This document shows positions 4,936-29,306 of a DNA stretch of 32,448 bases, piece by piece. The DNA is from Bacteroidota bacterium (lineage in GTDB: Bacteria > Bacteroidota > Rhodothermia > Rhodothermales > Bin80), in NCBI GenBank assembly GCA_026709065.1, contig JAPOTS010000017.1, forward strand, positions 1 to 32,448, in the 5' to 3' direction. Under the pieces are notes generated by a model. That model had not been told where the DNA came from. It saw only the letters and a program-made list of their open reading frames with translations, and did not search any database. How positions within the stretch are numbered: position 1 is the first letter of the stretch; every line of letters begins with the position of its first letter. The translations under genes and the position numbers were made by a program.

Positions 4936-6565
4936 GTTCTGCCTGATTTGCGTTACTTTAGCGCTCATTTATCAATCAACCATACAAGAACAGTCCTATG
5001 CAAAACTACATCAAAACGTTCAATTCAGCATCAATAGATTTACAATTAAGCATTGACACGATTTTGATAAAGGACATTGAGTTGGACCTTAAATCTCGTT
5101 CACCGATAGTGGCATTTCTCTATGGATTGCGGCAACTGTTAATGAATGAAAGCGCCGTTTATGAGCTGAAACTGTTGTTGGACAAGTATAATACTGGGGT
5201 GAGTAAGCGTCATGGTCGTCCTGGGATGAGTCTCTGGATTGTAATCCTTTTAGCGGCGGTGAAACAGGAATTACGTTGCAGTGATGATAATTTGGCTTTC
5301 TATGCCAATTCGCTGTTGCCTCTGCGTTTGATGATGGGACATAGTCTAAAGGATAAGACGCGATATACCCGTCAGGCGCTTCATGCGAATATATCATCGT
5401 TAGACTCTGAATTATTAAAAGCCCTCAACCGGTTGATCGTCAAATTTGGTCATCAAGAAGTGGGACACCAAGACGAGGTTGTTCTCAATACGCATGCCGA
5501 TAGCAAGGTGTGCTTGACGAATGTGGAGTATCCGACTGATCTCCGACTACTCTGGAATTCATGCACCAGTTTGATTGCATGCTGTGTGAGTTTCGCCTAT
5601 GCATTTGGGCTGACAGGCTGGAGACAGCATAAGTCGATCAAGCAGAAGCTTGAAAAGCTGTACAAGCATTCCTGTAAACGACGTCGGACGGCTTACCGAC
5701 TCAATAAAGTGATGAGGTATCTCAAGTATAGCAACTGGGTTGGAGAGAAAGCCAAAGAGATGCTGGGGGCGCTCACCGCTCAGAAAGAGGAGATCATGGC
5801 GCGTTTAGAAGGATCTACGCCGTCATCTGCGGATCGGATTCTCTTAGAGCAGATTGAAGAAGCCACGCAGAAGATCTGCCTCTATTTGGACTATATCGCC
5901 CTATTTTCGGATCAAATCATCCGCCGAGTGATCAATAATGAGACCATTCCAACCCAAGAGAAGATCTATTCCATCTACAAGCCCTTCACGCGTTGGATCG
6001 TGAAAGGGAAGGCGGGCGTGATGTGCGAGTTAGGTGTGCCAGTGGCCGTGGTAGAAGATTCATATCAGTTCGTCTTGGGCTATTGCATTGAGTGGAAAGG
6101 GGGAGACATTGATATTGCGGTATCGTTAGTCAAAGACATTGAGGAGCAATATCCGCATCTTAAGATGACCTGTTCGTTTGATTTGGGATTTTACAGTCCA
6201 GAGGTTCGCAGGCAATTAGAGACAGAGACGCGTTTGGAGACCGTTGGAATGTCACAGCGTGGCAGGTTGCCAAAAAAGGAAAAGGCGCGTCAGAATACAC
6301 AGGAGTATAAGGATGCGCGTGAAGGACATTCGCGGATTGAGTCATGCATGAATGTGTTGAATCATCGGGGAATGCGTTTGATTCGAGAGGCGAGTGAAGA
6401 GGGATTTGAGCGCGCGGTGGCCTGCACCATTATCACAGTGAATCTTCATCGGTTAGGGACGTTGATTCAGGCGCGAGAACTGAAGCGGCTCCGCCGGAAA
6501 GAGAAACAACGAAAACGCTTGCGGTTGGCGGCGTAGACCTCAACCGACCGAAAATCAGGGCAGAA
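4936..6565 (+). mobile_element. ISNCY-like insertion sequence
   Basis: The transposase gene is flanked by an imperfect inverted repeat. The left copy, TTCTGCCTGATTT at 4938-4950, matches TTCTGCCCTGATTTT, the reverse complement of 6551-6565, with one extra C. These may be the element ends or sub-terminal repeats. The AT-rich stretch to about 6776 ends in a motif (TAGTGCCCGTCC on the minus strand) that recurs upstream of the next gene and could be the true right end. I did not find a matching left end or a target-site duplication, so the boundaries are approximate. Confidence 0.6.
4998..6536 (+). CDS. ISNCY-family DDE transposase
   Basis: A complete 512-residue transposase. The N-terminal part has the conserved HGRPGMSLWIVILLAAVKQ segment, and the core opens with ADSKVCLTNVEYPTDLRLLWN, both characteristic of ISNCY (ISDol1-like) transposases. 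A DDE triad can be proposed: D168 in ADSKV, D395 in CSFDLGFYSP and E448 in RIESCMNVL. Between the first two lies a charged, helical insertion. The C-terminus is highly basic (RRKEKQRKRLRLAA), suited to DNA binding. The frame is undamaged, so the element may be active. It lies between two minus-strand genes and runs opposite to both. Confidence 0.85.
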   Translation: MQNYIKTFNSASIDLQLSIDTILIKDIELDLKSRSPIVAFLYGLRQLLMNESAVYELKLLLDKYNTGVSKRHGRPGMSLWIVILLAAVKQELRCSDDNLAFYANSLLPLRLMMGHSLKDKTRYTRQALHANISSLDSELLKALNRLIVKFGHQEVGHQDEVVLNTHADSKVCLTNVEYPTDLRLLWNSCTSLIACCVSFAYAFGLTGWRQHKSIKQKLEKLYKHSCKRRRTAYRLNKVMRYLKYSNWVGEKAKEMLGALTAQKEEIMARLEGSTPSSADRILLEQIEEATQKICLYLDYIALFSDQIIRRVINNETIPTQEKIYSIYKPFTRWIVKGKAGVMCELGVPVAVVEDSYQFVLGYCIEWKGGDIDIAVSLVKDIEEQYPHLKMTCSFDLGFYSPEVRRQLETETRLETVGMSQRGRLPKKEKARQNTQEYKDAREGHSRIESCMNVLNHRGMRLIREASEEGFERAVACTIITVNLHRLGTLIQARELKRLRRKEKQRKRLRLAA

Positions 6566-9871: not shown

Positions 9872-11401
9872 ATGGCAGTGACACCGGATGCACCAAGCTC
9901 ACAAAACTTGCCAAATCACGGCTTAAATGTAAGCGTGAAAAATTTTGGGCCGATCTACAGAGGCAACATTGATATTCGGCCACTTACTGTTTTTGTAGGA
10001 CAGAGTAACACTGGGAAGTCATATTTAGCCACCCTTGTCTATTCTTTGCACCGTTACTTTTCCAACAGCATAAATAATTTCACCTATTTTTTTCCTTGGA
10101 AAATCAAATCCTTAAAAGTCAAAGACGAAATTATATCTCACCCAGACATAATAAAATACCTTGATTCATGGATTTCTGCTCTTAATGAAGAGGATCAAAC
10201 ACCTCCGTTGCCAGAGCGAGTTGAGAAAGTGATTCGTTCAATCATAGAAAATGCCGAGTACCTGGCAGACCCTATTGAAAGGGAAATTATTAGGTGCTAT
10301 GGAATAAATTCCATCGGAGAATTGATCAGACTACCATATGCTAATGAAGCCGAAGCCATTGTAGATATTCCTCAACCGGATAAAAGGGGTAATCTGCAAT
10401 ATCACTTAGGCATCAATCACAACGAGTTCAATGTAACCACTAAATTAGACGGCTTAAGTTTGCCTTTTCCCGACTGGATTGAATCACGGGAATTGATTAT
10501 GATGAGTAAGACTATACTTAATGATCTAAATCCAGAATCCAAATCCGATCTGCACAATGCCAGTTCGCTATTGGGAATGCTCGCTGAAATAACTAGGAAT
10601 ACTATGAATAGCTTGCTTAGTCGGAATGCTTACTATTTACCTGCTGATCGGACTGGTGTCATGCATAGCCATCAGGTAGTCGTTAGTGCAATTATTCAGA
10701 ATGCAACCACAGCTGGGCTACGCCCTGCTCATGGTGTACCCATCTTGTCAGGCGTTCTCTCAGATTTCTTGGAACAACTCATACAAATGGCAAGCAAACC
10801 AAAATCTGAGATCAACCAGAAGTTAGACTCATTGGCATCATCAGTTGAGGAGACAGTTCTAAAAGGAGGGGTGAACCTTTGTGCTTCCAGTGTAAACTAT
10901 CCACATTTTTATTATAAGCCGAATGGATGGAACTTAACATTACCCCTCATGCGATCATCGTCCATGGTATCCGAGCTAGCACCAATCGTTCTATATCTCA
11001 GACATATTCTGACACCGGGCGATATTCTTATTATTGAAGAACCAGAATCACATTTACATCCCGAGATGCAAATTGAAGTCATCCGACTCTTGGCTCGGAT
11101 CGTACGTTCTGGAGTTCAAGTTGTTGTTACGACTCATAGCGAGTGGGTATTGGATGAGATAGCTACCATAGTACAGCGATCACAAAAAAGAGAATCTGAC
11201 AAGATCAATTCAGAAAATGCAAGCGACTGTCTCTTTCCTCATGAGGTTGGAGCATGGTTATTCAAACATCATGGAAAATCTGATGGAGTGGTTGTTGAAG
11301 AACTGGAGATAGATAATTCGGGATTATATCCTTCTGGTTTTGACCGAGTTGCTATTGATCAGCACAACCGATGGGCTGAAGTAGTAAGTGAAACTGAGTG
11401 A
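9872..11401 (+). CDS. AAA/OLD-type ABC ATPase, probable defence protein
   Basis: A 509-residue ATPase of the RecF/SMC-like (ABC/OLD) type. It starts with KNFGPIYRGNIDIRPLTVFVG and has Walker A GQSNTGKS at 43-50, Walker B ILIIEEPES with E389/E390, the LHPEMQ motif after it, and the switch histidine in VVTTHSEW (H422). The central 300 residues are helical and of no known fold to me. There is no TOPRIM domain, so the nuclease activity of true OLD proteins is not in this chain. Its stop TGA directly abuts the ATG of the next gene (11402), which encodes a decayed PD-(D/E)xK-like protein. The two look like a translationally coupled ATPase-nuclease pair, a common design in phage defence. The defence role is inferred. 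Confidence 0.8.
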   Translation: MAVTPDAPSSQNLPNHGLNVSVKNFGPIYRGNIDIRPLTVFVGQSNTGKSYLATLVYSLHRYFSNSINNFTYFFPWKIKSLKVKDEIISHPDIIKYLDSWISALNEEDQTPPLPERVEKVIRSIIENAEYLADPIEREIIRCYGINSIGELIRLPYANEAEAIVDIPQPDKRGNLQYHLGINHNEFNVTTKLDGLSLPFPDWIESRELIMMSKTILNDLNPESKSDLHNASSLLGMLAEITRNTMNSLLSRNAYYLPADRTGVMHSHQVVVSAIIQNATTAGLRPAHGVPILSGVLSDFLEQLIQMASKPKSEINQKLDSLASSVEETVLKGGVNLCASSVNYPHFYYKPNGWNLTLPLMRSSSMVSELAPIVLYLRHILTPGDILIIEEPESHLHPEMQIEVIRLLARIVRSGVQVVVTTHSEWVLDEIATIVQRSQKRESDKINSENASDCLFPHEVGAWLFKHHGKSDGVVVEELEIDNSGLYPSGFDRVAIDQHNRWAEVVSETE

Positions 11402-11837
11402 ATGAGCCTGACTGAAAAAATTCGAAATGAATATCGGAAAACATGTATTGTTGATAAACTTTAACGGCCTGATTGCTCTTATCGTTGCATGGAATTTCTA
11501 AGCCGTACATATTCATTGACTTAGATCTTCATGGATCTCCATTAGGGCCTAACGATAAAAAATGCGACTTTCTTGTGTACATTGACAATGTTGGTGAAAT
11601 GCCTTGTGTTGCTCCACTTGAATTTAAATCCACTTGGAGAGGAAAAATAGTTGAGCAGCTTCAGGCTGGTGCACAAGAGTAGAATATCGTGTTCCCCGTG
11701 AATTACAACAATGTCAATTTAGACCGATTGGAGTTCTTGGCAACTTTCCTAAGAATAAGAGGAAAGAAATTCGTCAACGAGTCTCGTTCAGGAATCATGA
11801 CGAGCCTGTAAGAATCATCTACTGTGGAGATCAATAA
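11402..11837 (+). pseudogene. Frameshifted PD-(D/E)xK-like nuclease partner of the ATPase
   Basis: Coding sequence runs through three frames. The first opens with MSLTEKIRNEYRKTCIVDKL and stops at 11462-11464. The second covers ISKPYIFIDLDLHGSPLGPN to LQAGAQE, stopping at 11680-11682. The third continues VEYRVPRELQQCQFRPIGVL and ends RIIYCGDQ at 11835-11837. Joined, they give about 145 residues, a sensible small protein, so at least two indels have broken it. The middle part shows KKCDFLVYID, then APLEFKS, matching the D-x(n)-ExK layout of PD-(D/E)xK nucleases. The start abuts the ATPase stop. Function is inferred from motif and context; a programmed frameshift is possible but two breaks make decay more likely. 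Confidence 0.65.
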
Positions 11838-12161
11838 TTAAAGCAATTTTGAGGGAAGAGTAAGGAAGAGAATGAATGCTTTTAGGGTATGTGTAATGAA
11901 TACTCCTAACACACAAATAGTGATAGACAATTCATTTTTAAGTTGTGAAGAGCACCAAGTAGGTTTATGAAGTATAGATTAATCCCCCATGGATCTTTTG
12001 TGTAAAGAAGGATGGATCTTCGCCGCTTTTTTGTCCACATTTCTATGGTAAAACGAGGTAAAGTGTTGTCCTATGAGTTCTACTCAATTTCTGATATAAT
12101 GGCAGAACTAAGCAATCTCTCTAATACTGTTGATCATGCTCAATCAACTAACAGTGCCAGA
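11838..12161. other. Convergent intergenic region with a hairpin
   Basis: No gene is seen between the decayed nuclease and the convergent TerB gene. At 12129-12134/12143-12148 GTTGAT pairs with ATCAAC around an 8-base loop, and ACTG/CAGT (12126-12129, 12052+100 i.e. 12152-12155) can extend the stem across a small bulge. There is no T-run, so it would be at best a weak bidirectional terminator. Confidence 0.3.
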
Positions 12162-13832
12162 TTAGTGCATGAATAATTCCATGTCAGCGTGCACATTTTT
12201 TACTGGAATTTTCAGAGCTTTATAGATGCTCTTGATCACCTTTATTTGATCATCAGTCACATCACCATCGATTGTAGCGACTTTGAAAGCGATCTCCACC
12301 GATGAGGGGTAACAGATGCTTCTCGGAGTCTTCTTGACCAGATCTCTGTACCATTGAATGGTCGGACAATAATCGCGCATGATGCGAAGATTTGCATGAA
12401 GACGAATCATTTCCTCTTCAACCAATTGCTTAGATTGGATATACTTTTCCAGAATCGTAACTGCATCTGGATGGATAGGATCTCTTGCATGGCCAACGAT
12501 GAATCCAGCCAAAATATACATGATGGATTCTTGATATTCATCGCTCACTTCTGTTAACCATGATCGATTCTCTGGAAGTTTAAATATAGCGTATGGAGCA
12601 TCAAAGCTAGATCCTTCCCATTCATAGATTGGATCAGGTGCCATCCCACAAGACAGAATCTTTAACGCTTCAGAAACCTTCCTGACCTGTGTAAGATATA
12701 CTTGGATATAGTGATCTAAATTGAGGACCTTTAGTAAATCTTGGATAGGAATATCTTCATTTGAAGGCATCGCTTTCTCTACCATGGTCTTGAGCTCTTT
12801 AAGCCCAGGTGGCAAACACATCGGTTTGATACTTTCAGGAAGTCGTTTATATGCGATTAATGGACTGTAGTTATATGCTCTTGTGGCCATATATAGACCA
12901 TAATCATAGATCATTTTTGAAGCTTGGTCAACCAACTCAATAGCGTCTTCATCTAATGACGAGATGGTGGTAAGGTCAGGAATCTTACCCAAATGGCGGA
13001 GTAGATCCACCGAGAAGCCCTGCTCCTTAGCTTCATACTTGGGGTGAAGTTCTGCTGTTACTTTGGGAATTGGAAGTCCATTTGGAAAATGCTGATCAAA
13101 CAAATGACCGAAAGTAACTATAAATTCTAAAAGTGCTCTTTGAACAGGTGCTTTTAGTGTTTTACCTGAGCAAATCAAATAGAGAACAAGGAACCAATGA
13201 TGATTCAATTGTTGTCCAGTCTCAATCTTGTTCTTCATGGCAACCCCAATATCCAGGGATGTGTGTTTGTGAGTTTTAATATCAGGATAGTGTGGTTCAA
13301 TCTCCTCAGCTGGTTTGATAATTGCGTTTGCAGTATCGATAAATTTCGTGAGGAATCTTTCAATGGTTCTAATCGGATATTTACCTCTGTATTGACCTAA
13401 TAGACGTTTCGCCTCAGAAAGAAGGATGAGGCATTCCTGCTCTTCAGGAGAATCAATAAAAAATCGTCGTTCCAATCCTAAGATATAGAGCAAGATGTAA
13501 CTTTGACCAAATCCATCAGCAGATCGCTCAGTAGCAAGCCACTCAAGATAAATAGCACGTTCAGAGGGTTCCATTGAACCATAGGACCATGGCTTTTCGC
13601 TCAGCTCAATTTTGGGATTAATTTCCTTGTTGAATTCTTTGACTGGCAGGTTTGGATCAATGGCTGAGTCATAATACTTTCCGAATGCACCGTCAACTCT
13701 GGTGCCGATATATACCATCCCTTGAATTTCACGGCCAGCTATGGTTAGAGTCTGATCTGCTGGAATCCAGGTATCATCAGGGTGTAGGGTAATGTTTTCT
13801 TTGAGAACAAGATCGCTTTGATCAATCATCAT
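12162..13832 (-). CDS. TerB-N/TerB-C domain protein
   Basis: A 556-residue soluble protein. Residues about 30-260 match the TerB-N domain: REIQGMVYIGTRVD, SAIDPNLPV, then SERAIYLEWLATERS and YILLYILGLERRFF. The last ~60 residues (KVATIDGDVTDDQIKVIKSI) fit the acidic TerB-C-type helical domain. The middle is helical with no recognised motif. TerB-type domains come from tellurite-resistance/stress systems and occur in predicted DNA-processing or defence operons, often beside an ATPase and a helicase. Here neither lies on the same strand next to it; the closest are the divergent ATPase pair and the Schlafen-like gene. No signal peptide or membrane segment. Domain call fairly sure, role unknown. 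Confidence 0.7.
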   Translation of the reverse strand: MMIDQSDLVLKENITLHPDDTWIPADQTLTIAGREIQGMVYIGTRVDGAFGKYYDSAIDPNLPVKEFNKEINPKIELSEKPWSYGSMEPSERAIYLEWLATERSADGFGQSYILLYILGLERRFFIDSPEEQECLILLSEAKRLLGQYRGKYPIRTIERFLTKFIDTANAIIKPAEEIEPHYPDIKTHKHTSLDIGVAMKNKIETGQQLNHHWFLVLYLICSGKTLKAPVQRALLEFIVTFGHLFDQHFPNGLPIPKVTAELHPKYEAKEQGFSVDLLRHLGKIPDLTTISSLDEDAIELVDQASKMIYDYGLYMATRAYNYSPLIAYKRLPESIKPMCLPPGLKELKTMVEKAMPSNEDIPIQDLLKVLNLDHYIQVYLTQVRKVSEALKILSCGMAPDPIYEWEGSSFDAPYAIFKLPENRSWLTEVSDEYQESIMYILAGFIVGHARDPIHPDAVTILEKYIQSKQLVEEEMIRLHANLRIMRDYCPTIQWYRDLVKKTPRSICYPSSVEIAFKVATIDGDVTDDQIKVIKSIYKALKIPVKNVHADMELFMH

Positions 13833-14572: not shown

Positions 14573-15889
14573 TCATGTGTCGCTTCTAAACGATGAAATG
14601 GGATCAAAATAGTTACGGATTAATTTTGGATTATCAACAATTGGAGCGTGATTTATATCTGAATTAGGTTCAAGAAAATCTTGAATCATTTTGGATTTTT
14701 TTGCCTCCCGACTTGACTTTGAATCAGATTGAGCGTTTGAGGAATCTTCATTGGATTGGAAAAACACATGACCCATCTCTGGTGACGGAATTCGAAAAAA
14801 TGTAATTGTCACAAAATTTTTAGAAATGGTATATTTGGGTTCAGCTACTTTATGTTTGCGACATTGATCTTGAATAAGGCGAATACCATATCCTACACGT
14901 TCAACCATGCCCATACGATGAAGAATCCTAAATAATAATGGATTCCTTGGGATGCTACTTATCCCAAGCTCCGATTCAGTCATACCAGACGGTAAGCCTC
15001 CAGGGCTTATGATTTCTAACCTGTCGGAGTATAAATGGACTTGAATATTTCCAGCAGAACGATAGTCACGGTGAGCGAAAGCATTGATTACAGCTTCCCG
15101 TATCGCGGATGGAGGAAATTCGGGGCGCTCTTCACGATGTAGTTTTTCTATGATATATTCAATATTGATTTTAGACAGAATCCATTCTACTGTGTCATTA
15201 ATCATTGAAACGATATCGCTATGAAAATCATGTCGACCGAGGATATGCGCTTTAGTGGTTCCCATAAACAAAACACACGAAACGTCTGCACTGATATTGA
15301 AATCCCGTATATTCTTGGCCAGTAGCCAGGCGCATGCGTTAGTCACCTTAAAATTTTTGGTGATCAGATCCAAGTTTCTTAGAGCAATTTTGGGAGACAT
15401 CTCACTGGGGATCTTAGACTGCTCTTGAAACCATAACCAATGATCTTTATCCAAATCATCCTCCAAAGAAAAACTTTGACAAATACTATTATCAAAATGT
15501 AGATATCCTACTTCATAAAAGAAATTCCCGATTTCCTCCCTTGACAGTTGCTGAGAATTAGCTCCTTGACGGAGATAGAATTTCCCTTGAAATGAGTAAG
15601 GCTGTCTTTCTTGTGGAGGAACCTCAATACAAATGACTGAATCAAGACTCTTGATCTCTATGTGAATGGGAGGATCTGCTGAGTATGCAATCGTCTGAAT
15701 CTTTGATCTTAAACTATTTGTATCAGAGATCCCAACAATTTTGCCAGAATCACAAACTCCTAATAGAATTTCCCCGCCAGAAGAGTTAGCAAATGCACAG
15801 ATTTCGCGCCCGATATTGGATGTAAACGATCGTTGGAACTCAATACCGCTCCCCTCTCCTTCAGCTATAAGTTGATTCAGTTGATCAAT
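14573..15889 (-). CDS. Schlafen AlbA_2 plus GHKL ATPase protein (RecG-related), start codon unclear
   Basis: The frame is open from 15913 to the stop at 14573 and encodes one continuous protein of about 440 residues. Residues ~1-130 form an AlbA_2 (Schlafen-type) domain: QLNQLIAEGEGSGIEFQRSF, EICAFANSSGGEILLGV, then GKFYLRQGANSQQLSREEI. The second half is the HATPase_c_4 module: PPSAIREAVINAFAHRDYRS, the LEIISPGGLPSG box and HRMGMVERVGYGIRLIQ. The length fits the family. No in-frame ATG, GTG or TTG precedes the TTG at 15466, which would delete the whole AlbA_2 domain. ATT at 15887-15889 is offered here as the start. An AAG two codons earlier (15893-15895) would be ATG with one base change, so the start may have been lost by mutation. 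Such proteins are predicted nucleic-acid-binding regulators or defence factors. Confidence 0.7.
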   Translation of the reverse strand: MDQLNQLIAEGEGSGIEFQRSFTSNIGREICAFANSSGGEILLGVCDSGKIVGISDTNSLRSKIQTIAYSADPPIHIEIKSLDSVICIEVPPQERQPYSFQGKFYLRQGANSQQLSREEIGNFFYEVGYLHFDNSICQSFSLEDDLDKDHWLWFQEQSKIPSEMSPKIALRNLDLITKNFKVTNACAWLLAKNIRDFNISADVSCVLFMGTTKAHILGRHDFHSDIVSMINDTVEWILSKINIEYIIEKLHREERPEFPPSAIREAVINAFAHRDYRSAGNIQVHLYSDRLEIISPGGLPSGMTESELGISSIPRNPLLFRILHRMGMVERVGYGIRLIQDQCRKHKVAEPKYTISKNFVTITFFRIPSPEMGHVFFQSNEDSSNAQSDSKSSREAKKSKMIQDFLEPNSDINHAPIVDNPKLIRNYFDPISSFRSDT

Positions 15890-16048
15890 AGTCTTAGTCT
15901 GTGAATTATTGAACTATATACTTGACTGTTATAAGTAGATTTTCACTTGATTGTTCAAACGTGAGAATTACCCTGTTTAGGTAGATGCACTATATATGAA
16001 ATATAATTTCAGGTTTCAATGATTGTATTGCTTTACAATAGATACACG

Positions 16049-22987: not shown

Positions 22988-23428
22988 TTAAGAACCACCG
23001 GTGAGCAATAATGTTATCAGCCACCCACCCATGGTCAAGATTATACCGATACCAGTAGTTATACCAATCTTGAGCCATTTAATCACTGAATCAAACCGTT
23101 TGTCTACTAAATCAAACCGTTTGTCTACTAAATCTAAACGTTTATCTATTGAATCTAAACGCTGATCTACTGAATCAAAACGATGATCCACTGAATCAAA
23201 ACGATGATCCACTGAATCAAAACGATGATCTACTGAATCAAATCTGGCATCAACAATACTCTTGAACGAATCTGTTTCAGACTTAACTGAAGTGGTTGAT
23301 AGATCCGTCTGAATTTCCACGAGTTCGTAAGTTTCTGCTTCAGTCAAGGATCCGTTTTGATCCAACTTCCTCAACAAGACAAAAGCACGGGTGCGCAGGT
23401 TAGATGTAGATTTTGATGTGGGTTCCAT
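22988..23428 (-). CDS. Heptad-repeat coiled-coil protein with C-terminal membrane anchor
   Basis: A 146-residue protein. Residues 59-115 are a regular heptad array of the form RFDSVDH/RLDSIDK/RFDLVDK, eight to nine copies with hydrophobic F or L and V or I at a/d-like positions, so a parallel coiled coil is expected. Residues 119-142 form one hydrophobic transmembrane helix (WLKIGITTGIGIILTMGGWL) with a very short tail, so the coil most likely faces the cytoplasm. The N-terminal 50 residues are charged and helical. The layout recalls Bdr-like and DUF1640-type proteins, but I do not assign a function. It stands alone, well separated from both neighbours. Confidence 0.65.
   Translation of the reverse strand: MEPTSKSTSNLRTRAFVLLRKLDQNGSLTEAETYELVEIQTDLSTTSVKSETDSFKSIVDARFDSVDHRFDSVDHRFDSVDHRFDSVDQRLDSIDKRLDLVDKRFDLVDKRFDSVIKWLKIGITTGIGIILTMGGWLITLLLTGGS
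23087..23254 (-). repeat. 21-bp tandem repeat, eight copies, in frame
   Basis: Eight consecutive 21-base units begin with TGAATC or TAAATC on the plus strand. The units at 23171-23191 and 23192-23212 are identical and the next differs by one base, while units toward the 23087 side have diverged. Each unit encodes one heptad of the coiled-coil protein on the minus strand. Because the unit is a multiple of three and near-identical copies adjoin, copy number can change without breaking the frame. Confidence 0.85.
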
Positions 23429-23813: not shown

Positions 23814-26603
23814 CTAACGAGATTGAGTGTCTGACAAAATGTCTCTGATTTCGCTAGGTGCAAGTGCAATATCGCAGGACCAGTCTCCAAATCGTCTATC
23901 CTCATTGACAGCTCGAACCCACTCTTGAAGAAATCTGTGCTTGGCCTTTGTCTCGTCATTTTCTTTCCCTTTGATTTCAAGAACCAGCATGGTCCCTGAT
24001 TGAAGTTTAATGATAAAATCAGGGCGATAATTACGGATGATTCCTCGGTAATGGTATTTGATTTCAAAACCGAGATGATCATTTTTAACCCATGCCAGTA
24101 TCTCCGAATTTTTATCAAGTTCTTTGGCTGCTAAGGCTTCCCACGTGCTATCGTAAACACAATAATTGATATGACTCCGTTTAGTGAGCCCACAGGGCTT
24201 GGAGGTATCCCATGAAATCATATCTCCAGTAGAACGAATGGGTTGATCTGAATCAAGCAATATTTCTCGATTTTCAGAATTCTCAGAACGAATCGCACCT
24301 ATTATATACCTGACAACCTTGGTCATTTCAAGGCTGATGATAATTTTACGCTTCCGATCGTTGGCTTGAATGAGCAATTGAGGTAAGATATGAATTCCAT
24401 TAGGTCGGGCAATAAACTGCTCAACTAGATGTACTAACTGAGATAACAGATCAACTCTCCCTCCTTTCCAATTGGGATTGAGCTGATCACACACTTCTTT
24501 GGCTGTCTGAAATATAATTGTCTGCAACCGTCTGTCTCCCATTAATTTCTCCAAGTCAATTTCTTTAATTTTGGTAAGATCGGGCTTGCCTTCAACGGTC
24601 GGCGCTAGTTCGGCCAGTTTAGGAATATTTGTTGTGTCCAAGGTGAGTGGACTTAGTTTTTTCCAATCCACAACTAATTTCGTACGGAGTGCGTGTTCAA
24701 TACGAATCACATTTGGCCATTTAATCTCAAATGTCTGTTGTCTTTCAGTAATCGGTTCAACCGTTGTCTTTGGTTTAGGGGGTGGCGGTGGAATGTCCAA
24801 TCCACCTTCATGAGGTAGAAAGGTGAATGGAACTCCAAAAATATTGACATATTCTGGATCAAAAAATCCTGTTTCTGGATTCACATCATAAGTCGTACGA
24901 CGTAATCCACGCCCGACCACCTGCTCACAAAGAAGTTGGCTCGTGAACGCTCTCAGTCCCATGATATGCGTGACTGTCTTCGCATCCCATCCCTCGGATA
25001 ACATTCCAACAGAGATTACATTCTGAATCATCTCCCCTGGCTTGCCCACCTGCCCTACCGTATCTACTTGCTGCCGTAAAAACTCAGCCTGTTGCTTTTT
25101 AGTCCGCTCTTCTTTGGGTTTACTATCATCATCTATATCTGCAATGGGCACTTCCGAACTGTCGGCTTGACTCAGGACTTTTGAGTCAATATGAAGAATA
25201 CGTTCAGGATCACATAGTTCTTTAATGTCTATTTTTTTATGATCAAACATGTATTTGATGCGTGCGGCTGTTTCGGTGCGATTAGCCACTGTAATCATCA
25301 CTGGCCGAGTGTGATTACCAGATTGATTTTCCCAATTTTTTAAAGTTTCTCTCCAATCATAACCAAGTAAATTATAACCATGACGGACTAAATCAGGTAA
25401 CTGCTCCTCAGGTAGTGCTTTCCTGTTTAAGTCGCTCTGAACTTCTGGATCATTATAGATGTGATAGAGCCTTGATTTGTAGGTTTGAGCATCTGGTAGA
25501 GCATCATCATTTATCACGACACGAGGTGTCTTCACCAGCCCTGATTCAATCGCATCATTAAGCCCAAAGTCAGTTACAATCCAACCAAACAGTGCTTCCT
25601 CACGGGTTTGATTTCCAGATGGTGTAAAAGGTGTTGCTGAAAAATCATAACATTTCAGTATACCACGGGCTTTGTGGATTCTGTCTAATCCACCGATCCA
25701 TTTTGTGGCTTTTTCAAGCTCATTTTTTTGAACACCCCTCTTGGAATTAGGGGTTACACGCCATGCATGATGTGCTTCATCATTGATAATCAAGAGGTTT
25801 TGTGTATTAGAGATCTTCCCAAGAACTTCCCTTGCATAGGCCTCATCACTCTGTACTCCCCGTTTATCAACTCCACGTTTTTTAGCAATCTGTTCTGCCG
25901 TTTTCCAATTTAAAGCGTGCCAATTACGGATTACAACGCGTCCCTGACGTAATTTCTCAAGTAATGCCGAAGGGACTATCCTAAAACTTTCATAATAATT
26001 ATCTGGGTCGTTGGGATCAACAACTGCCAAACGATTCTTAACTGTAAGCCCAGGAGCTACAACAAGGACATTCTTAGAAAATCTTATATCCTGCTTATTT
26101 GCGACTTTGTTGAGGATATGCCATGCAATCACCATGGCCATGACCACAGTTTTGCCAGACCCGGTAGCCATCTTTGCACACAGCCTTTGAAACTCTCCAC
26201 CGTCAGACGTAATATCCAAACCAACTTTTTGATTTGCAGGAGCTTCTGTCAGCCAGATCAGTGTTTCAGCCGCTTCCAGTTGACAAAAGAAGAATCTCCT
26301 TGTTTCAAATTCTTCGGGATCATGCCAATAATTTAGCAATCGTCTAGTAACACTTGTGACTCCAGGGTATCCATCATTACGCCAGTTCTTGACACGTAGC
26401 CGAATTAGATTCACAAGTGGAATTTCTTGAAAAATTCCTGGATCATCAAAAGATTTTGAATCCTTGGAAGCTACTAAATATCCGGCGGGCCGACGCTTAT
26501 TAATTATGTCAAACTTTCTAATATGCCTTTCGTAATGCCAGTGCCTTTTAGGCTCATCATAAGGGGAGTTGATAATTAATTGGTCAATGGTTTTGCTAGG
26601 CAT
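23814..26603 (-). CDS. res: Type III-like restriction subunit, BPTD_3080 family (helicase plus nuclease)
   Basis: A 929-residue DEAD/DEAH helicase-nuclease, the cutting half of a restriction-modification system. The N-terminus INSPYDEPKRHWHYE and RRPAGYLVASKDS are family-specific. Walker A is MATGSGKT at 145-152, the Walker B DEAH box is at 275-278 (INDEAHHAW), motif III-like YDFSATPF follows, and motif VI is QVVGRGLRR. The C-terminal ~90 residues carry a PD-(D/E)xK nuclease core, YRPDFIIK then MLVLEIKGK. No frameshift or missing motif is seen. It begins 139 bases after the end of the modification gene on the same strand. If the methyltransferase is off while this protein is made, the host could be exposed to self-cleavage unless cleavage needs Mod, as in classical type III enzymes. 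Confidence 0.88.
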   Translation of the reverse strand: MPSKTIDQLIINSPYDEPKRHWHYERHIRKFDIINKRRPAGYLVASKDSKSFDDPGIFQEIPLVNLIRLRVKNWRNDGYPGVTSVTRRLLNYWHDPEEFETRRFFFCQLEAAETLIWLTEAPANQKVGLDITSDGGEFQRLCAKMATGSGKTVVMAMVIAWHILNKVANKQDIRFSKNVLVVAPGLTVKNRLAVVDPNDPDNYYESFRIVPSALLEKLRQGRVVIRNWHALNWKTAEQIAKKRGVDKRGVQSDEAYAREVLGKISNTQNLLIINDEAHHAWRVTPNSKRGVQKNELEKATKWIGGLDRIHKARGILKCYDFSATPFTPSGNQTREEALFGWIVTDFGLNDAIESGLVKTPRVVINDDALPDAQTYKSRLYHIYNDPEVQSDLNRKALPEEQLPDLVRHGYNLLGYDWRETLKNWENQSGNHTRPVMITVANRTETAARIKYMFDHKKIDIKELCDPERILHIDSKVLSQADSSEVPIADIDDDSKPKEERTKKQQAEFLRQQVDTVGQVGKPGEMIQNVISVGMLSEGWDAKTVTHIMGLRAFTSQLLCEQVVGRGLRRTTYDVNPETGFFDPEYVNIFGVPFTFLPHEGGLDIPPPPPKPKTTVEPITERQQTFEIKWPNVIRIEHALRTKLVVDWKKLSPLTLDTTNIPKLAELAPTVEGKPDLTKIKEIDLEKLMGDRRLQTIIFQTAKEVCDQLNPNWKGGRVDLLSQLVHLVEQFIARPNGIHILPQLLIQANDRKRKIIISLEMTKVVRYIIGAIRSENSENREILLDSDQPIRSTGDMISWDTSKPCGLTKRSHINYCVYDSTWEALAAKELDKNSEILAWVKNDHLGFEIKYHYRGIIRNYRPDFIIKLQSGTMLVLEIKGKENDETKAKHRFLQEWVRAVNEDRRFGDWSCDIALAPSEIRDILSDTQSR

Positions 26604-26742: not shown

Positions 26743-27330
26743 TCACTCTAATTCTAAGATCTTTAGACTTTCAATGCCGCGATCATCAATGATTTTGACC
26801 GCTGCTCTTCGATGCTCACCTGCCTTAAATGGTAGTGATTTTGTACCGACATAAGCATTGATGAGACTTGGATCAATGTCTGCTTTGAGGTTTTTTTCTA
26901 ACCGCTTCAGATCTTTCTCTCCCCTATCTGTAAGAAAGAATACCTGTCTGGGAAATAGGCTACGGCCATCGTAATCGGTATCAAGCATCCACATTGCAAT
27001 CTTCTCGGAATTTCCAGAGTCAATTTCTTCAGTCTCCATATTGAAGTAATCAAATCCATGAACGGAAATCCGATACTCCTTATTATTTGAGTTAGGATCC
27101 TTTTCAACCCGTACGTCTGGTTGGCCGATCAACCAGAAACTTTCGTTACTGGCGCGTTTCTTTCTCAGATCATCGGTTAAAAGATCGGAGTTCATCTGTG
27201 CTTTAAGCAGCGTCATGCCTGGCCAGTTTGTTTCATCAATGTCTTTTGAGGCTTCTGGATCAAATTGAAAAGCCGCAAAAATTATGATGGATGGCTTAGG
27301 GACAATGCTATTGGCATCCTCAATTGCCAT
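26743..27330 (-). pseudogene. mod: C-terminal part of the Mod methyltransferase, now out of frame
   Basis: From the ATG at 27330 it encodes 195 residues: IVPKPSIIIFAAFQFDPEAS, NWPGMTLLKAQMNSDLLTDD, SFWLIGQPDVRV, KIAMWMLDTDYDGRSLFPRQ and RGIESLKILELE. This is the C-terminal domain of the BPTD_3080-associated methyltransferase. The frame is open further upstream: 27331-27546 reads WRDELLKTGVRGKSGQRISF to FGPDHAPLEQRQVA without a stop, and remains open through the poly-C tract. The ATG is therefore probably an internal methionine and this is not an independent gene. It is separated from the N-terminal part by a one-base frame difference at 27536-27548. It may be expressed as part of a full-length protein when the upstream frame shifts. 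Confidence 0.8.
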
Positions 27331-27476: not shown

Positions 27477-29306
27477 CTAACCTTGCGAAAGAAATACGTT
27501 GCCCTGACTTCCCACGTACACCTGTTTTGAGTAATTCGTCACGCCAATCCTGTTGACGTATTGTTTGCCCAGAACGCTGTGGATGAAAAATCGAGGGGGG
27601 GGGGGGGATTTTGAGTCGACCTCTTGAAGTGGTTTTACGGTTGGTGCTGGAACCGCCTCAACGGTAAATGGCCCTGCAACACGGGTTTTACTTTTATCTA
27701 TGAGCGGTTGGTCATACAAGACTGTTTCTCTGGGTTCCTCGTCATAGCCTAATATTTTTGGGGAAACGGTTTTTACGCTTTTATATTCAAATCCAGACCC
27801 GACACCCTCATTAGGATGTGCTAATTCGTAGTAATCGTAAAATGCAGTTAGGAGGCGTTGCCGAGCCACCGCAATAGCCACGCGTGAAGTGTCACACGTA
27901 ATCCACCGTCTGCCCCATTGTTCTGCAACAAATGCAGTGGTTCCACTGCCGCATGTAAGATCAATCACGATATCACCTGGGTCACTCGTCATTAAGATAC
28001 AACGTTGAATTGGTTGGGGTGCAGTTTGAACAACATAGCGTTTTCCTATAGCTGATCTTTGGTGAGCCCAGACATTATTTATCCTCCTGCCAGGTACTTC
28101 ATTTTCGTAACGTTTCCATCGTAACCAAGCATTGTCACCTTTGACTGCATCAAGCCGACCAAGAGCTGCAAGTCTATCCAAACCGTCCTTAGAAATAGCC
28201 CAATGTGTGTTTTTAGGGCAAAGAAATTTTCGTCCATTCCACTCATATGGCTCCGATCTACCAGTCGAGGAAGCACCTTGAGAATTAAGTTTTTGTAATT
28301 CATATATTCTAGATCCTTGAGGCAAATGTTGATCTGGAGCAAAACGTTCTTCTTGCGTGAGTTTTCTGCGAGTCCCGTTTGGAAGCTCAACCATTACAGT
28401 CCATCCGAGTAACTGAATTGTACCCTTGCGATCCATTGACTCATATAACTGTCTATATTTAACCTTTTGAATATCTTTAGCATACCAAATAAGATAATCT
28501 GCGACCTCAGGAAGAGTATTTGCAGAACTACCGCTCGTGGTAGTATATGTAATGGTAGCTACTCGATTCTCAGCGCCAAAAATCTCATCCATGATTATTC
28601 CAACGCGGTGAACATTTTCATCCCCAATCTGCATAAAACAACTTCCACTTTCATGCAACAAATCATGAGCTAACAACAACCGATCTCGGAGGTAGGTCAA
28701 ATACGAATGGATCCCCAACTCCCATGTGTCTCGGAATGCCTGGATCTGTTCTGGCTCAGCCGTAAGATTTTGATCCGCGTCTCCACCCGTTGGACTTTGT
28801 TCGCTTACAAATGGCTGGAAATTTGAACGATACCCTACTCCATACGGAGGATCAATATAGATGGTTTGTACTTTCCCACCAAGTCCTTCCTTTTCCAACA
28901 AACTATTCATAACTAATAAACTATCCCCAGCAATCAATCGATTCACCCAATTCTGACGATGTTTATAGAACTCTATCGCCTGACGAAGTGGTGGATTTTC
29001 TTCAGGTGTAGAAAATAAAGATAACTGCTCAGAGGTATCATCAGCACGTTTGCGAACAGCATCAATGACGGTATGTGGATCCATTCGCTCATGGACATGA
29101 AGCGATACAGTGGGTAAGTCAAATGATGTGCGCTCTTTCTTACCAGCCCACTCTAATTGCGGGTCTATATGCGGATCATGATGATATATCTTCTTGTCAT
29201 CCTGCCCGTCCGTTTCGGGAGTGACTAAACCCACAGGGGGATTATTTACGCGCTCTTTTCCTTCATGAGTGTAAGTTTCTACCGTTCGCTTCTTGGTACG
29301 CCCCAT
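27477..29306 (-). CDS. mod: Type III-like Mod DNA methyltransferase, N-terminal catalytic part (truncated)
   Basis: The first 609 residues of a beta-class N6-adenine/N4-cytosine methyltransferase. The conserved start RVNNPPVGLVTPETDG is followed by LEWAGKKERTSFDLPTVSLH. The catalytic DPPY is at 152-155 (YIDPPYGVGYRSNF) and the AdoMet-binding motif VIDLTCGSGTTAFVAEQWG lies near 455-470, giving the DPPY-first order of the beta class, with the target recognition region between. After residue ~560 comes a C13 tract coding SPPPP, then RFFIHSVLGKQYVNRIGVTN. From there the frame is wrong, adding YSKQVYVGSQGNVFLSQG and a stop. The continuation is in the neighbouring frame down to 26743; the full protein would be 854 residues. 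Both catalytic motifs are kept, but the missing C-terminus may be needed for the Res complex. Confidence 0.88.
   Translation of the reverse strand: MGRTKKRTVETYTHEGKERVNNPPVGLVTPETDGQDDKKIYHHDPHIDPQLEWAGKKERTSFDLPTVSLHVHERMDPHTVIDAVRKRADDTSEQLSLFSTPEENPPLRQAIEFYKHRQNWVNRLIAGDSLLVMNSLLEKEGLGGKVQTIYIDPPYGVGYRSNFQPFVSEQSPTGGDADQNLTAEPEQIQAFRDTWELGIHSYLTYLRDRLLLAHDLLHESGSCFMQIGDENVHRVGIIMDEIFGAENRVATITYTTTSGSSANTLPEVADYLIWYAKDIQKVKYRQLYESMDRKGTIQLLGWTVMVELPNGTRRKLTQEERFAPDQHLPQGSRIYELQKLNSQGASSTGRSEPYEWNGRKFLCPKNTHWAISKDGLDRLAALGRLDAVKGDNAWLRWKRYENEVPGRRINNVWAHQRSAIGKRYVVQTAPQPIQRCILMTSDPGDIVIDLTCGSGTTAFVAEQWGRRWITCDTSRVAIAVARQRLLTAFYDYYELAHPNEGVGSGFEYKSVKTVSPKILGYDEEPRETVLYDQPLIDKSKTRVAGPFTVEAVPAPTVKPLQEVDSKSPPPPRFFIHSVLGKQYVNRIGVTNYSKQVYVGSQGNVFLSQG
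27536..27548 (-). other. Frame-break point, probable loss of one 13-bp repeat copy
   Basis: On the minus strand ATTGGCGTGACGA encodes IGVTN in the upstream frame and, one base on, WRDE in the downstream frame. The expected family sequence reads IGVTNWRDELL. Two tandem copies of this 13-mer would encode exactly that, so a 13-base deletion between direct repeats explains the break. Confidence 0.6.
27595..27607 (-). repeat. C13 homopolymer tract inside the mod gene
   Basis: Thirteen C on the minus strand (G on the plus strand) encode the SPPPP stretch. Tracts of this length slip readily at replication and are the hallmark of phase-variable type III mod genes. At 13 C the frame runs into the conserved RFFIHSVLGKQYVNRIGVTN. 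At 14 or 11 C the frame continues without a stop into the C-terminal part. Confidence 0.85.

What the first reader, a model, noticed from the sequence alone, without database searches (positions are those of the whole stretch)
9872..11837. Coupled ATPase plus decayed PD-(D/E)xK-like partner: candidate two-gene defence system
Seen: an OLD/RecF-like ATPase without a nuclease domain whose TGA abuts the next ATG, and a following ~145-residue coding stretch broken in two places with a D-x(n)-ExK pattern (CDFLVYID, APLEFKS). Known: ATPase-nuclease pairs are common anti-phage systems. Inference: this is such a pair, and the toxic effector has been disabled while the ATPase frame is intact.
Basis: partly seen in the sequence, partly recalled or inferred. 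Interest (0 to 1): 0.6.

Follow-up and report, generated by a model that had tools for sequence, protein, structure and literature searches.

The report
Phage-defence-like gene pair, nuclease broken
The window holds an intact ATPase gene followed by the wreck of its small partner gene; relatives show that the intact partner carries a conserved nuclease active site, so this is a damaged copy of a known type of two-gene anti-phage system (PD-T4-4/WonAB-like), in a genome that keeps another intact copy.

Summary
ATPase 9872-11401 (509 aa, ABC/AAA_15, no Toprim) is intact and abuts a partner that is broken four times, not twice: one nonsense codon and three one-base frameshifts. Twelve intact pairs were found in the same order, one of them in the same genome (contig C33). 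In ten distinct partners aligned, D-x(n)-E-x-K plus a downstream Q are among only eleven invariant columns; the motif alone would be weak evidence (30% by chance). The ATPase's best PADLOC match is PD-T4-4_A (4e-40). The partner family is homologous to PDC-M47B/PD-T4-4_B (hhalign 4e-8). The tree puts this clade outside the sampled PD-T4-4/M47 ATPases. The partner was under strong purifying selection (dN/dS 0.09), so its decay is recent. Across the wider group in these genomes, five loci keep the ATPase frame without a usable nuclease and one shows the reverse, although the ATPase is the larger target. This suggests that the nuclease is the costly half, as reported for WonB. Phage defence and toxicity are inferred by homology; the PD-(D/E)xK fold was not confirmed (single-sequence AlphaFold pLDDT 40). 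A new member of a known kind.

The parts
9872..11401 (+). Intact ABC/OLD-type (AAA_15) ATPase, 509 aa, putative sensor/regulator
   Evidence: Open frame; AAA_15 2e-24; PD-T4-4_A 4e-40, PDC-M47A 4e-34; 75% identical to the intact relative L008; dN/dS 0.23
9998..10021 (+). Walker A, GQSNTGKS
10640..10657 (+). Conserved PADRTG motif with arginine (perhaps the counterpart of WonA R182; inference)
10955..10984 (+). ABC signature region, SSSMVSELAP
11024..11062 (+). Walker B and D-loop region, ILIIEEPESHLHP
11129..11146 (+). H-loop, TTHSEW
11402..11860 (+). Broken partner gene (remnant of a ~150-aa PD-(D/E)xK-like protein): stop codon at 11462-11464, frame changes near 11477, 11680 and 11833
   Evidence: intact homologues
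11518..11535 (+). DLDLHG: conserved DxD strand of the partner
11560..11577 (+). KCDFLV: invariant Asp of the putative active site
11617..11631 (+). LEFKS: invariant ExK of the putative active site
11656..11673 (+). QLQAGA: invariant Gln in the following predicted helix

Best explanation
This is a decayed copy of a two-gene ABC-ATPase plus small-nuclease defence operon of the PD-T4-4 / PDC-M47 / WonAB kind. In intact copies the ATPase would dimerise on ATP, sense some product of phage infection, and hold or license the small PD-(D/E)xK-like nuclease. When triggered, the nuclease would cut nucleic acid and abort the infection. Shown here: the two-gene organisation, the ATPase motifs, the invariant D/ExK/Q core, homology to known systems, and the four lesions that disable the partner in this genome while the ATPase frame stays open. 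Inferred from WonAB (PMC12137116): the sensor and effector roles, the toxicity of the free nuclease, and abortive infection. Here the operon can no longer make the effector, so as a defence system it is presumably dead or reduced to the ATPase alone.
For: Intact pairs at twelve loci in the same order, including the window's own genome at C33. Invariant D40, D42, D56, E74, K76 and Q86 in ten partners. ATPase hits to PD-T4-4_A 4e-40 and PDC-M47A 4e-34. Partner relatives hit PDC-M47B at 6e-5 and PD-T4-4_B at 0.011. Partner profile against an alignment of PD-T4-4_B, M47B and two related plasmid partners: hhalign E 4.4e-8, aligned over D, ExK and Q. The partner profile finds the own genome's PDC-M47B at 9e-6. 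Partner dN/dS is 0.094 against L008, so it was a selected gene until recently. Five loci with ATPase intact and partner broken or absent against one reverse case. Defence-type neighbours in relatives: AIPR, Schlafen AlbA_2, Fic, and a phage integrase. WonB is reported toxic without WonA and needs its nuclease lysine (PMC12137116).
Against: The window partner itself hits no PADLOC, Pfam or NCBIfam model. The AlphaFold model of its intact homologue has pLDDT 40. No phage, plasmid or viral contig carries a close homologue. No activity is known for this clade. The loss bias rests on six loci.
Confidence: 0.78

Rival explanations
1. The pair is a toxin-antitoxin module: the partner is a nuclease toxin and the ATPase its antitoxin. 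Loss of the toxin leaves a harmless antitoxin, and no phage trigger is needed.
For: Five loci keep the ATPase without a usable partner, against one reverse case. In WonAB, excess WonB is toxic and WonA with WonB is not.
Against: The ATPase has full ABC hydrolysis motifs and relatives are proven phage-defence systems. The WonAB authors considered a toxin-antitoxin reading and give an argument against it. One locus (G270:C7) keeps an intact partner with a split ATPase.
Confidence: 0.12
2. The partner breaks are assembly or sequencing errors and the operon is intact in the living organism.
For: Three of the four lesions are one-base shifts, few excess amino-acid changes have accumulated, and only one assembly is on hand.
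Against: One lesion is a substitution to a stop codon; the indels are not in long homopolymers; the ATPase and the 929- and 1125-aa neighbours are uninterrupted; other genomes show independent partner damage.
Confidence: 0.07
3. The ATPase has a function of its own, with the partner dispensable, and is being kept as a solitary gene.
For: All four lesions fall in the partner, which is 23% of the operon (rough P 0.003 if lesions were spread evenly; 0.012 for the three later ones). A solitary intact ATPase exists at G270:C162.
Against: The window ATPase branch shows no special constraint (dN/dS 0.23, same as its relatives); 12 of 16 loci are paired; the lesions may simply be recent.
Confidence: 0.12

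Closest known systems
PD-T4-4 (Vassallo et al. 2022, PMC9519451; PADLOC PD-T4-4_A/B)
   Same: AAA_15 ATPase followed directly by a small PD-(D/E)xK-type partner; ATPase HMM 4e-40 including the C-terminal extension; partner core aligns over D, (D/E)xK and Q.
   Different: ATPase longer (509 against ~480 aa), partner shorter (~153 against ~209 aa); the partner does not reach the PD-T4-4_B model; separate clade in the tree.
PDC-M47 (PADLOC phage-defence candidate)
   Same: Same gene order; M47B is the best model for the partner relatives (6e-5); the same genome carries a true M47 pair at C21.
   Different: The ATPase matches M47A over only part of its length; separate, well-supported clade.
[quoted passage not shown]
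   Same: Two-gene operon, ABC ATPase without Toprim, small PD-(D/E)xK-type nuclease with its catalytic Lys at a similar place (WonB K71; K76 here); spacing from Walker B Glu to H-loop His about 33 residues in both.
   Different: Sequences not compared here. The insert between Walker A and the conserved Arg is about 60 residues longer if the PADRTG Arg matches WonA R182.
Gabija / OLD nucleases / PARIS / Septu
   Same: Related ABC-type ATPase core (weaker PADLOC hits to AriA, GajA, Old, PtuA).
   Different: No Toprim in the ATPase and no UvrD-type, Toprim or HNH partner.

Membership tests
PD-T4-4 / PDC-M47 | ATPase matches the A-component model | tested here: met
   PD-T4-4_A 4.1e-40 and PDC-M47A 3.7e-34, but over parts of the length
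PD-T4-4 / PDC-M47 | Partner matches the B-component model | tested here: inconclusive
   Window remnant: none. Intact relatives: M47B 6e-5, PD-T4-4_B 0.011; hhalign against a mixed alignment of both 4e-8
PD-T4-4 / PDC-M47 | A then B, adjacent on one strand | tested here: met
PD-T4-4 / PDC-M47 | ATPase groups with PD-T4-4/M47 ATPases in a tree | tested here: not met
   15 family sequences form their own clade, 100/100, apart from four PD-T4-4/M47-type sequences; long branches
[quoted passage not shown]
[quoted passage not shown]
   V. cholerae sequences not fetched; no public profile on hand
[quoted passage not shown] nuclease toxic alone | not testable with these tools
   needs the bench
PD-(D/E)xK nuclease fold | Conserved D, ExK and following Gln | tested here: met
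   Invariant in ten homologues
PD-(D/E)xK nuclease fold | Alpha-beta-beta-beta-alpha-beta core in a confident model | tested here: inconclusive
   Order of elements fits, but pLDDT is 40 from a single sequence
OLD / Gabija | C-terminal Toprim nuclease in the ATPase | tested here: not met
   Only AAA models hit; 83 residues after the AAA_15 match
PARIS / Septu | Toprim (AriB) or HNH (PtuB) partner | tested here: not met
   Partner relatives hit neither

The most novel reading that the evidence does not exclude
These Bacteroidota carry a distinct subtype of ATPase-nuclease pair (long-insert ATPase, short nuclease). It repeatedly loses the nuclease while the ATPase stays intact, and the left-over ATPase is kept for a use of its own, for example restraining the nucleases of sister copies in the same cell.
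Probability: 0.12. Interest if true: 0.55.

Novelty: new member of a known kind. Interest (0 to 1): 0.35.

Why it matters
It adds a separate, unannotated clade to the little-studied family of ABC-ATPase sensors paired with small nucleases; the partner hits no curated Pfam or NCBIfam model. The window's genome carries at least four loci of the wider group: C33 and C21 intact, C96 and C132 without a usable nuclease. Natural effector-first decay fits the reported toxicity of WonB and makes a simple prediction: the nuclease is the costly half, and the ATPase alone is harmless.

Tried and rejected
Viral-contig scans with partner and ATPase alignments gave no partner homologue and four weak ATPase matches. 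tblastn of the L008 ATPase found nothing in plasmids or phages. A more divergent family ATPase found plasmid ATPases, and the three examined carry ~175-210-aa partners. A profile search of solved structures with the partner family found nothing. A single-sequence structure prediction failed. Deeper alignments were not handed to the structure tool, because its rule allows only loci fetched by certain tools. No literature was found on PDC-M47. PARIS, Gabija and Septu were considered and rejected on partner type. A purely chance motif was rejected on conservation.

Full report
What is there. The window frame 9872-11401 (+) encodes a 509-residue ATPase with AAA_15 (2e-24) and AAA_21 matches in Pfam and nothing nuclease-like. 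It has Walker A (GQSNTGKS), a PADRTG arginine motif, an ABC signature region (SSSMVSELAP), Walker B (ILIIEEPESHLHP) and an H-loop (TTHSEW). Its TGA abuts an ATG at 11402. From there three frames carry pieces of one protein: 11402-11461, 11473-11682 and 11655-11834.

Lesions. Aligned with the intact relative L008 and counted by codon, the partner has one nonsense codon (codon 21, 11462-11464) and three one-base frame changes near 11477, 11680 and 11833. At in-phase codons the partner has dN/dS 0.094 against L008, and the ATPase 0.227. So the partner was a strongly constrained gene until recently. Assembly error is unlikely, because one lesion is a substitution, the indels are not in long homopolymers, and long neighbouring genes are uninterrupted; reads were not available.

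Intact homologues. A search of 296 genomes of the phylum found intact partners of 83% and 61% identity next to intact ATPases in the same genus, and two more divergent pairs in a sister genus. With a profile, more pairs appeared, including one in the window's own genome at contig C33 (ATPase 524 aa, partner 150 aa). Searching the family and the order with the ATPase profile gave 16 loci. Twelve are intact pairs: G270:C20, G167:C22, G215:C117, G215:C134, G395:C98, G392:C15, G396:C28, G000:C33, G278:C58, G462:C17, G463:C176 and G301:C25. Three have an intact ATPase frame without a usable partner: the window; G270:C11 (frameshift near the end of the partner); and G270:C162 (no partner within the stretch examined). 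One, G399:C57, has a broken ATPase and no partner.

The motif. In ten distinct intact partners the eleven invariant columns include D40, D42, D56, E74, K76 and Q86 (L008 numbering). In shuffles of the peptide a D-x(10-25)-[DE]xK arises 30% of the time, so conservation is the argument, not the motif in one sequence. The order of predicted elements in the AlphaFold model is that of a PD-(D/E)xK core, but pLDDT is 40 and I give it no weight. Weak HSDR_N and Cas4 matches in relatives point the same way.

Relation to known systems. The ATPase's best PADLOC models are PD-T4-4_A (4e-40) and PDC-M47A (4e-34). Partners of relatives hit PDC-M47B (6e-5) and PD-T4-4_B (0.011). The partner profile aligns with an alignment of one genuine M47B (the own genome's), one genuine PD-T4-4_B (an Escherichia marmotae plasmid) and the partners of related Bernardetia and Enterococcus ATPases at E 4.4e-8, over D, ExK and Q. 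Those plasmid copies are also ATPase-partner pairs. In a tree the fifteen ATPases of the window's family form their own clade (100/100) apart from the four PD-T4-4/M47-type sequences, which have long branches. PD-T4-4 came out of a phage-resistance selection (PMC9519451). WonAB, described as related to PD-T4-4 and to the 'OLD-ABC ATPase + Novel REase' operons, is an abortive-infection system in which the nuclease is toxic when made in excess of the ATPase and both active sites are needed (PMC12137116).

Which half is lost. I also looked at PDC-M47-type loci in these genomes. Intact pairs: G000:C21, G270:C42, G396:C19, G395:C117, G397:C3 and G160:C55. ATPase intact with no usable partner: G000:C132 (absent) and G392:C128 (cut after residue 67, before the ExK). 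ATPase split with partner intact: G270:C7. Together with the window's family this makes five ATPase-only loci against one partner-only locus, although the ATPase is about three-quarters of the operon; a rough one-sided binomial gives P of about 0.003-0.01. The numbers are small and the searches for M47 loci used the ATPase as bait, so this is suggestive only. For the window's family the phylum was also searched with the partner as bait, and every partner found had its ATPase.

Mechanism. The best-supported reading is a sensor ATPase that holds or licenses a small nuclease, which is released or activated on infection. The roles are inferred from WonAB; the anatomy is shown here. In this genome the locus cannot make the nuclease, but a second intact copy (C33) and an M47 pair (C21) remain. 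Neighbours of relatives include AIPR, Schlafen AlbA_2, Fic and a phage integrase, and the window itself has a type III restriction-modification pair, which fits a defence setting.

Verdict. A real, damaged member of a known kind of ATPase-nuclease defence pair, from a separate clade. It is moderately interesting for the separate clade and the tendency to lose the nuclease first.

Noticed in passing
window 14573-15910, - strand: Schlafen AlbA_2 / HATPase_c_4 protein whose frame is open well upstream of the listed TTG start (AlbA_2 5.6e-19), but with no ATG, GTG or TTG before that domain: start codon lost or unusual.
   Followed up: partly
window 12162-13832, - strand: TerB_N-domain protein (2.5e-27) facing the broken partner; weak PADLOC hits to SngA and PtuB.
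   Followed up: no
window 23814-26603 and 27477-29306, - strand: Type III restriction-modification pair (res-like helicase-nuclease and N6/N4 methyltransferase) with an unannotated 195-aa ORF between them at 26743-27330.
   Followed up: no
window 22988-23428, - strand: 146-aa protein with near-perfect tandem repeats 'RFDSVDH' and a C-terminal membrane-like segment; a similar repeat-bearing protein (RIDQVNG) lies near the broken ATPase in L046.
   Followed up: no
window 4998-6536, + strand: 512-aa transposase-like ORF with no significant Pfam match, only DDE_3 at 0.065.
   Followed up: no
L072 (G270:C7) 325-2293: M47-type operon with the ATPase split into two frames that overlap as stop/start (1179-1182), partner intact: a broken or a genuinely split ATPase.
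   Followed up: no
L074 (G000:C132): The window's own genome has another M47-type ATPase with no detectable partner.
   Followed up: partly
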